From Ruminococcus sp. (GTDB lineage Bacteria > Bacillota > Clostridia > Oscillospirales > Ruminococcaceae): a DNA stretch of 64,000 nt. The stretch spans positions 1-64,000 of the forward strand of contig JAJQGO010000041.1 in NCBI GenBank assembly GCA_021200415.1, read 5' to 3'. Each line of letters opens with the position of its first letter. Positions within the stretch are counted from its first letter, which is position 1. Below the pieces are notes generated by a model that saw only the letters and a list, made by a program, of their open reading frames with translations, was not told the origin of the DNA and ran no database searches. A program made the translations under genes and the position numbers. This document shows, one piece after another, positions 20,789-21,772 of the stretch.

Positions 20789-21772
20789 TTATTCTGAAAG
20801 ATACTCTTCAAACGAAGCCTCTCCGCCTGTCTGCGAATAAGCAAAGTAAGCGAGAGTCAGGGACGCGTCAACAGCGTCTACCGCTGCGTCATAATTTACA
20901 TTTGCAGCTCCTTTTTCTATTGCTGAAGCAGTATAATCCCCTACAGCCGTTTTTGCGTAAATTGAAAGAATCAATGAAGCGTCAACGGCATCAACGACGT
21001 TATCGCCGTTAAGATCGCCAATGCTGTAAGCGTATTCAACATCAAATGTGAGATCCGGTTCCGGACGGAGAACAAGCGGTGCGCCGTCCTCAGTAGCTTT
21101 GCTGTAGGACAGATAATATTCCTCCGCATCTATACCTGCATCTGAAAGATTAACAGCTCCGTTTTCATCTGTAACAAGCTCATATGTGCAGTCAGCGTTT
21201 GACAGTGTAACAGTCATGCCCTCAACTGCCTGTCTTTCGGTAATGGCATTCCAGCTGTCGTCATATCCAACAGTATCCATGCTTGTGAATGTAAGGATAC
21301 CCGTTGATGAATCGTAGTCGTATTCAGGATACTGAGGAGTTACATCGCTGCTCTGATAAATATAGTAAAGCACGATTTCATCGCCGTCTGCTATGGTATA
21401 GCTTCCCACGCCAACGCTGGGAGAAACTCCGTTCACACAATACATCCAGCCGTCCCATGCACCGAAGCAGCCTGCCGTTTCGCCGTTTACAGCGGATATA
21501 TAATCGCCGTAATCGGAGATAGTCCATGTAATCTCAAGATCATCGTACTGAGCGTCAAGCTCCCTGAGAATGTCCGCAGCGGTAAGCTCGGTTTCTGATT
21601 CAATTTTCACAGTATCATAGCAGAAGCATTCGCTTATGCCCTCCACACGCACACTGACACTGTACTGGTTATCGGTATCATCCGCATCGGCGTATGCGCA
21701 CAGTGGCAGTGCCGACACGATAACTGAAGCTCCGAGAACCGAAATAAGCGCGTTTTTCATTGTTTTCCTCAT
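20789..21772 (-). CDS. Secreted DUF4430 (transcobalamin beta-domain-like) protein with C-terminal dockerin-like module
   Basis: Signal peptide; GAWDGWMYCVNGVSPSVGVGSYTIADGDEIVLYY; duplicated GDLNGDNVVDAVDASLILSIYAKTA / ANVNYDAAVDAVDASLTLAYFAYSQTG; ATG 21772 with AGGAAG RBS. Confidence 0.85.
   Translation of the reverse strand: MRKTMKNALISVLGASVIVSALPLCAYADADDTDNQYSVSVRVEGISECFCYDTVKIESETELTAADILRELDAQYDDLEITWTISDYGDYISAVNGETAGCFGAWDGWMYCVNGVSPSVGVGSYTIADGDEIVLYYIYQSSDVTPQYPEYDYDSSTGILTFTSMDTVGYDDSWNAITERQAVEGMTVTLSNADCTYELVTDENGAVNLSDAGIDAEEYYLSYSKATEDGAPLVLRPEPDLTFDVEYAYSIGDLNGDNVVDAVDASLILSIYAKTAVGDYTASAIEKGAANVNYDAAVDAVDASLTLAYFAYSQTGGEASFEEYLSE

What the first reader, a model, noticed from the sequence alone, without database searches (positions are those of the whole stretch)
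20789..21772. Dockerin fused to a predicted ligand-binding (non-enzymatic) DUF4430 domain
The protein has a signal peptide, then GAWDGWMYCVNGVSPSVGVGSYTIADGDEIVLYY (DUF4430-like), and ends in GDLNGDNVVDAVDASLILSIYAKTA...ANVNYDAAVDAVDASLTLAYFAYS, a duplicated dockerin-type Ca-binding motif with nearly identical D-A-V-D-A-S cores. Dockerins normally bring carbohydrate-active enzymes to cellulosomes. A dockerin on a likely vitamin-binding domain in a B12-riboswitch operon suggests the cellulosome could also scavenge cofactors.
Basis: partly seen in the sequence, partly recalled or inferred. Interest (0 to 1): 0.8.

Follow-up and report, generated by a model that had tools for sequence, protein, structure and literature searches.

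The report
Dockerin-anchored vitamin B12-capture protein
A fibre-degrading Ruminococcus makes a transcobalamin-like, predicted B12-catching protein under a B12 riboswitch and most likely holds it on its cell surface with a dockerin plug, the connector otherwise known from its cellulose-degrading machinery, where its relatives use an ordinary cell-wall anchor.

Summary
The minus-strand gene 20789-21772 encodes a signal peptide, a DUF4430 domain, an Ig-like domain and a dockerin (DUF4430 and dockerin over Pfam cut-offs). Its DUF4430 domain folds like the B12-binding beta domain of human transcobalamin. A B12 riboswitch lies upstream (31 bits, E 2.4e-5). The next genes encode a membrane-bound transcobalamin/intrinsic-factor look-alike and an ECF transporter. 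The genome has cohesins and no CbiC.

The interpretation needs correcting. The dockerin is not of the enzyme class. It belongs to the symmetric class of ScaB and CttA (77.8 versus 12.4 bits), the counterpart of R. flavefaciens group-4 dockerins that bind the sortase-anchored ScaE. Its nearest solved relative (8ajy chain B) is complexed with the cohesin nearest this genome's own ScaE (8ajy chain A). The recognition letter differs between two genomes (V/I versus L), and the DUF4430 dockerin follows its own ScaB/CttA in both. In about 48 of 56 operons of the genus the first-gene slot ends in a sortase signal; four have a dockerin.

Most likely the dockerin is a swapped-in surface anchor for a B12 receptor, not evidence that the enzyme cellulosome scavenges cofactors. 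Predicted, not shown by experiment.

The parts
20789..21772 (-). Gene for the DUF4430-dockerin protein (327 aa from ATG 21772; ORF opens at 21793)
21686..21772 (-). Signal peptide (read by eye; no predictor run)
   Evidence: sequence; low-confidence N-terminus in the model
21362..21577 (-). DUF4430 = transcobalamin-like beta (SLBB beta-grasp) domain, predicted B12-contacting domain
   Evidence: Pfam PF14478 51.2 bits; AF2 model matches 5no0/5np4, haptocorrin, intrinsic factor; hhalign to the toroid protein's DUF4430, prob 98
21044..21325 (-). Ig-like / CarboxypepD_reg-like spacer domain, conserved with sortase-anchored relatives
20792..21022 (-). Dockerin, symmetric ScaB/CttA class (DAVDAS in both repeats)
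21925..22016 (-). AdoCbl-II type cobalamin riboswitch
18800..20773 (-). Membrane-anchored transcobalamin/intrinsic-factor-like protein: alpha/alpha toroid (res. 34-301), disordered linker, 2 predicted TM helices (466-513), DUF4430 (567-643)
17937..18803 (-). EcfT-like membrane protein (inferred from operon position and hydrophobicity; no Pfam hit)
16304..17974 (-). EcfA-EcfA' fused ATPases
15646..16320 (-). ECF S component (substrate-binding), predicted cobalamin
   Evidence: PF07155/PF12822; substrate inferred from riboswitch and neighbours

Best explanation
The protein is the outermost part of a B12 (cobamide) import system. When adenosylcobalamin is scarce, the riboswitch lets the operon be expressed. 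The DUF4430-dockerin protein is secreted, and its dockerin plugs into the cohesin of the sortase-anchored ScaE (or another single-cohesin surface protein of that specificity), so it stays on the cell wall. Its transcobalamin-like beta domain catches corrinoid and passes it to the membrane-bound toroid-DUF4430 protein, a two-domain transcobalamin-like binder, which gives it to the EcfS-EcfT-EcfAA' importer. The dockerin does the job that the SPKTG sortase signal does in most relatives. Shown by sequence or predicted structure: domains, riboswitch, operon, dockerin class, anchor exchange, presence of ScaE. Inferred: B12 binding by this domain, pairing with ScaE, the hand-over.
For: Domains over Pfam cut-offs. 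AF2 model (pLDDT 83) matches the isolated transcobalamin beta domain, apo 5no0 (E 4e-6, TM by target 0.73) and CNCbl-bound 5np4 (0.78), plus haptocorrin and intrinsic factor. The toroid protein's best fold matches are intrinsic factor and transcobalamin. Riboswitch in the window and in dockerin-bearing and sortase-bearing relatives. Own genome: one strong B12-binding domain, no CbiC. Dockerin class: 77.8 bits with the symmetric-class profile vs 12.4 with the enzyme class; the FD-1 ScaH dockerin, which binds ScaE (PMC5301203), scores 76.1 vs 21.9. Nearest solved dockerin is 8ajy_B, rmsd 1.2; nearest solved cohesin of own ScaE is 8ajy_A, the partner in that complex. Position 11 is V/I in 26/26 class repeats in G000 and L in 29/36 in G070; ScaB, CttA and the DUF4430 dockerin follow their own genome. 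The same slot ends in a sortase signal in about 48 operons of the genus; orthologues in G047 and G122 end in SPKTG/SPKTS.
Against: No binding data. The dockerin is only 2.6 bits over the Pfam cut-off, and its second loop (NVNYDAAVD) is degenerate. The close orthologues with a sortase signal are few (G047, G122); the roughly 47 other sortase-type first genes are remote homologues of the window protein (hhalign prob 98.6). The recognition-letter covariation rests on two genomes. The beta domain alone lacks the toroid half of the classical B12 site. No AlphaFold-Multimer of dockerin with cohesins was possible.
Confidence: 0.68

Rival explanations
1. One reading: the dockerin plugs the B12 binder into the enzyme-bearing scaffold (ScaB/ScaA-type cohesins), so that the released or surface cellulosome itself scavenges B12.
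For: It is a dockerin in a genome with a multi-cohesin ScaB. A GH5-like enzyme also carries a class-B dockerin (L095; identified by reading the sequence).
Against: The enzyme-type dockerins of this genome (including ScaC's) form a separate class; the window dockerin scores 12.4 bits with that profile against 77.8 with the ScaB/CttA class. ScaB's own dockerin is in the same class, so the two would compete for ScaE rather than sit one on the other.
Confidence: 0.1
2. The dockerin binds a lipoprotein cohesin rather than ScaE, which would place the B12 binder at the membrane beside the ECF importer.
For: The genome has single-cohesin proteins with lipobox-like signal sequences: L045 (LTAC), nearest to solved autonomous cohesins, and L046 (MSGC; weak match). 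FD-1 group-4 dockerins bind cohesins G and H weakly or in some assays (PMC5301203).
Against: In FD-1, ScaE is the main group-4 partner. The solved pair closest to both halves here is 8ajy.
Confidence: 0.13
3. The dockerin is a relic or an intramolecular calcium-binding module with no partner.
For: Marginal Pfam score; degenerate second calcium loop.
Against: Both repeats keep identical recognition dyads in most of the proteins, including diverged ones (AV/AV, AL/AL, SD/SD); the model is confident over the dockerin and matches 8ajy_B at 1.2 A rmsd; the recognition letter follows the genome.
Confidence: 0.05
4. The DUF4430 domain binds something other than a corrinoid (another cofactor, a metal, a glycan), and the operon imports that.
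For: The SLBB superfamily binds diverse soluble ligands (PMC1796856); the R. gnavus structure 3u7z is annotated as a putative metal-binding protein; EcfS matches general ECF families including riboflavin and folate.
Against: B12 riboswitch in the window and in many relatives; partner protein folds like intrinsic factor.
Confidence: 0.04

Closest known systems
Transcobalamin-clade SLBB proteins of Gram-positive bacteria (Burroughs et al. 2007, PMC1796856)
   Same: Secreted beta-grasp domain, toroid partner, often a second SLBB protein and CbiO/CbiQ-like transporter in the operon, predicted B12 scavenging; some carry Gram-positive anchors
   Different: A search of that paper's text finds no dockerin or riboswitch; here the anchor is a ScaB/CttA-class dockerin
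Human transcobalamin / intrinsic factor
   Same: Predicted fold of the beta domain (window protein) and of toroid plus beta (next gene)
   Different: Split over two proteins; the second has two TM helices and a long linker; about 10-20% identity; binding not shown
R. flavefaciens FD-1 group-4 dockerins (ScaB, CttA, ScaF, ScaH, ScaI, peptidase; PMC2930009, PMC5301203)
   Same: Symmetric repeats; profile match of ScaH dockerin to this genome's class; fold match to ScaH dockerin; ScaE present
   Different: Recognition dyad is A-V here and G-R in FD-1; no B12-related cargo in the passages read of the two papers
Non-enzyme dockerin proteins (serpins, transglutaminase-like, LRR; PMC2930009)
   Same: Dockerin on a non-CAZyme
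   Different: Cargo is a predicted vitamin receptor under riboswitch control
ECF-type B12 transporter (PMC5997447, title and abstract only)
   Same: ECF importer with B12 as (here predicted) substrate
   Different: Here the operon adds extracellular transcobalamin-like binders

Membership tests
Dockerin | Two F-hand-like Ca-binding repeats, significant HMM | tested here: met
   PF00404 25.5 vs cut-off 22.9; fold match to 8ajy_B
Dockerin | Cohesin partner in the genome | tested here: met
   10 cohesins over cut-off, including ScaB and a sortase-anchored ScaE
Dockerin | Calcium-dependent cohesin binding | not testable with these tools
   needs binding assay
R. flavefaciens-type group-4 (ScaE-binding) dockerin | Symmetric repeats; clusters with ScaB/CttA dockerins | tested here: met
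R. flavefaciens-type group-4 (ScaE-binding) dockerin | FD-1 Gly-Arg recognition dyad | tested here: not met
   Dyad is Ala-Val, but own ScaB/CttA also have Ser/Ala-Val/Ile, so a different recognition code rather than a different class. Filed as counterpart, not as an FD-1 group-4 member in the strict sense
R. flavefaciens-type group-4 (ScaE-binding) dockerin | Binds ScaE cohesin | not testable with these tools
   inferred from class, dyad covariation and 8ajy
Enzyme-type dockerin of this genome | Clusters with dockerins of the CAZyme/ScaC class | tested here: not met
   12.4 bits vs 116-142 for members
Transcobalamin-clade SLBB / DUF4430 | PF14478 domain with transcobalamin beta fold | tested here: met
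Transcobalamin-clade SLBB / DUF4430 | Corrinoid binding | not testable with these tools
   binding residues also not compared; no coordinates available
AdoCbl-II cobalamin riboswitch | Rfam RF01689 gathering score | tested here: not met
   23.5 vs 36.5 bits
AdoCbl-II cobalamin riboswitch | Match to a model of relatives that do reach the gathering score, at the same operon position | tested here: met
   31 bits, E 2.4e-5, next best 15.8
ECF transporter | EcfA pair, EcfT, S component | tested here: inconclusive
   EcfAA' and S clear; EcfT by position only, no Pfam hit

The most novel reading that the evidence does not exclude
In cellulosome-bearing Ruminococcus the anchoring cohesin ScaE is a general exchangeable surface dock used outside fibre degradation. 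Under B12 limitation a riboswitch-controlled transcobalamin-like receptor is docked onto it and may compete with ScaB/CttA for the same sites, linking vitamin status to display of the fibre-degrading machine. A second origin (G099, G113) would build a chain, with a cohesin-like domain and a dockerin-like module flanking the B12 domain.
Probability: 0.3. Interest if true: 0.78.

Novelty: new variant of a known kind. Interest (0 to 1): 0.62.

Why it matters
What the many non-enzyme group-4 dockerin proteins of Ruminococcus do is open; the authors of PMC2930009 suggested roles outside the cellulosome such as structuring the cell surface. This gives one such protein a concrete, regulated predicted function and a testable partner. 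It shows a dockerin and a sortase signal as interchangeable ends of one gene family, and it suggests that B12 capture by gut fibre degraders uses a bacterial counterpart of intrinsic factor, which matters for competition for B12 in the rumen and gut.

Tried and rejected
Rfam gathering scan of the whole window found nothing, and RF01689 in the own genome found nothing at the default threshold; resolved with a custom model. Searching the genus with the full protein gave mostly other dockerin proteins, so the dockerin-free part was used. Sequence searches against the PDB with the toroid protein found only squalene cyclase-like toroids; intrinsic factor appeared only by fold. Literature searches for dockerin with cobalamin or vitamin B12 gave no paper that from its title and abstract describes such a protein. 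Rejected: enzyme-class dockerin; chance or mis-assembly (several genomes).

Full report
What is there. The gene is on the minus strand, 20789-21772, 327 aa from the ATG with a good ribosome-binding site. Pfam finds DUF4430 (51.2 bits) and Dockerin_1 (25.5 bits), both over cut-off. The downstream genes on the same strand encode a toroid-TM-DUF4430 protein, an EcfT-like protein (no Pfam hit, by position), fused EcfA-A' and an ECF S component. These are the only two DUF4430 proteins of the genome.

B12. Rfam's AdoCbl-II model matches upstream below its gathering score (23.5 bits). In relatives the same position carries AdoCbl-II riboswitches above the gathering score (15 loci) or the classical Cobalamin riboswitch (1 locus). 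A model built from the 15 finds the window's at 22016-21925 (-): 31.0 bits, E 2.4e-5 for the whole window unfiltered, next best 15.8. It also finds one upstream of the first gene in G070, G103, G047 and in the G124 and G122 loci. The genome has one strong B12-binding domain in a 794-aa frame (probably MetH, not checked) and no CbiC, which fits a B12 scavenger; other biosynthesis genes were not searched.

Fold. The AF2 model of the window protein (12 sequences, pLDDT 83) matches the beta domain of human transcobalamin, apo (5no0) and cyanocobalamin-bound (5np4), haptocorrin and intrinsic factor, and the ScaH dockerin 8ajy_B at 1.2 A rmsd. The next gene's model (pLDDT 74, toroid and beta domain confident, linker not) has intrinsic factor and transcobalamin as top fold matches. 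The overall rmsd is large because the relative placement of the two domains is not predicted.

Dockerin class. Cohesins: a ScaB with six cohesins, ScaC, the start of a CttA-like gene at the end of contig C37, and the end of a CttA-like gene followed by ScaE (SPKTG signal) at the end of contig C61. Dockerins: 42 Pfam hits, in two main classes by eye: an enzyme class (SDAV...KYPL...GDGxSNxDALAxQ) and a symmetric class (D[AS][IV]DAS twice) shared by ScaB, CttA, the DUF4430 protein and mainly non-CAZyme proteins; by reading their sequences these include LRR-type, peptidase C1-like, GDSL-like and one GH5-like protein. The window dockerin scores 77.8 bits with the second class (profile built without it) and 12.4 with the first; leave-one-out controls separate cleanly. 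The FD-1 ScaH dockerin, shown to bind ScaE (PMC5301203), behaves the same way. 8ajy holds the ScaH dockerin (chain B) and the cell-wall anchoring cohesin (chain A); the window dockerin's nearest solved relative is chain B and own ScaE's nearest is chain A.

Recognition letters. At position 11 the symmetric class has V or I in 26 of 26 repeats in this genome and L in 29 of 36 in G070 (the counts include ScaB, CttA and DUF4430 dockerins). ScaB and CttA in each genome, and the DUF4430 dockerin in each, follow the local letter. G070 has scaC, scaB, cttA and scaE on one contig. This rests on two genomes.

Anchor exchange. In the genus the first gene of this operon encodes signal peptide, DUF4430-like domain, Ig-like domain and an anchor. 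The sortase-type proteins are remote homologues (hhalign prob 98.6, E 8e-16) of the window protein; the close orthologues in G047 and G122 (40-44% identical) end in sortase-like signals. On a tree of 56 toroid proteins, dockerins are in 4 rows (window, G070, G103, G124) inside a fully supported clade of 6; about 48 rows have sortase signals. One or two dockerin gains both fit. Two further genomes (G099, G113) have a cohesin-like domain before and a dockerin-like module after the B12 domain (Pfam matches below cut-off, and for G099 the cohesin is seen only by similarity to G113), nested among sortase types (only G099's toroid is in the tree), so probably a separate origin. Elsewhere the slot ends in choline-binding repeats (L343) or another dockerin (L362, over cut-off). 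The anchor is thus the variable part.

Conclusion. The best reading is a B12 receptor docked on the cell-wall cohesin, the dockerin doing the job of a sortase signal. The wider operon class was predicted in 2007 (PMC1796856); the dockerin version was not found in the literature searches. Nothing here is an experiment: corrinoid binding, the cohesin partner and hand-over remain inferred.

Noticed in passing
L168 (G113) and L170 (G099), minus strand: First gene of the B12 operon has a cohesin-like domain before the DUF4430-like domain and a dockerin-like module after it: a possible adaptor scaffoldin in a B12 operon. Pfam matches below cut-off.
   Followed up: partly
L045:2145-2921 (+) and L046:2993-3943 (-), own genome: Single-cohesin proteins with lipobox-like signal sequences; L045 is nearest to solved autonomous cohesins, L046 matches only weakly.
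   Followed up: partly
P0002; L343:3743-5956; L362:4405-5952: Tandem duplicates of the DUF4430(-like)/Ig unit, ended by a dockerin, by choline-binding repeats, and by a dockerin respectively.
   Followed up: partly
36934-37713, minus strand: Small secreted protein that reads like a CAP/SCP domain fused to a dockerin (dockerin by Pfam, CAP by eye).
   Followed up: no
40435-43335, minus strand: Secreted protein resembling a rhamnogalacturonan lyase (by eye) with a dockerin near the N-terminus rather than the C-terminus.
   Followed up: no
11443-15726, plus strand: Sugar ABC transporter-like genes followed by a GH88-family gene, next to the end of the B12 operon; also conserved beside it in G070.
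   Followed up: no
P0007: DUF4430 dockerin with SD/SD dyads; its genome's ScaB/CttA would be a third test of the recognition-letter covariation.
   Followed up: no
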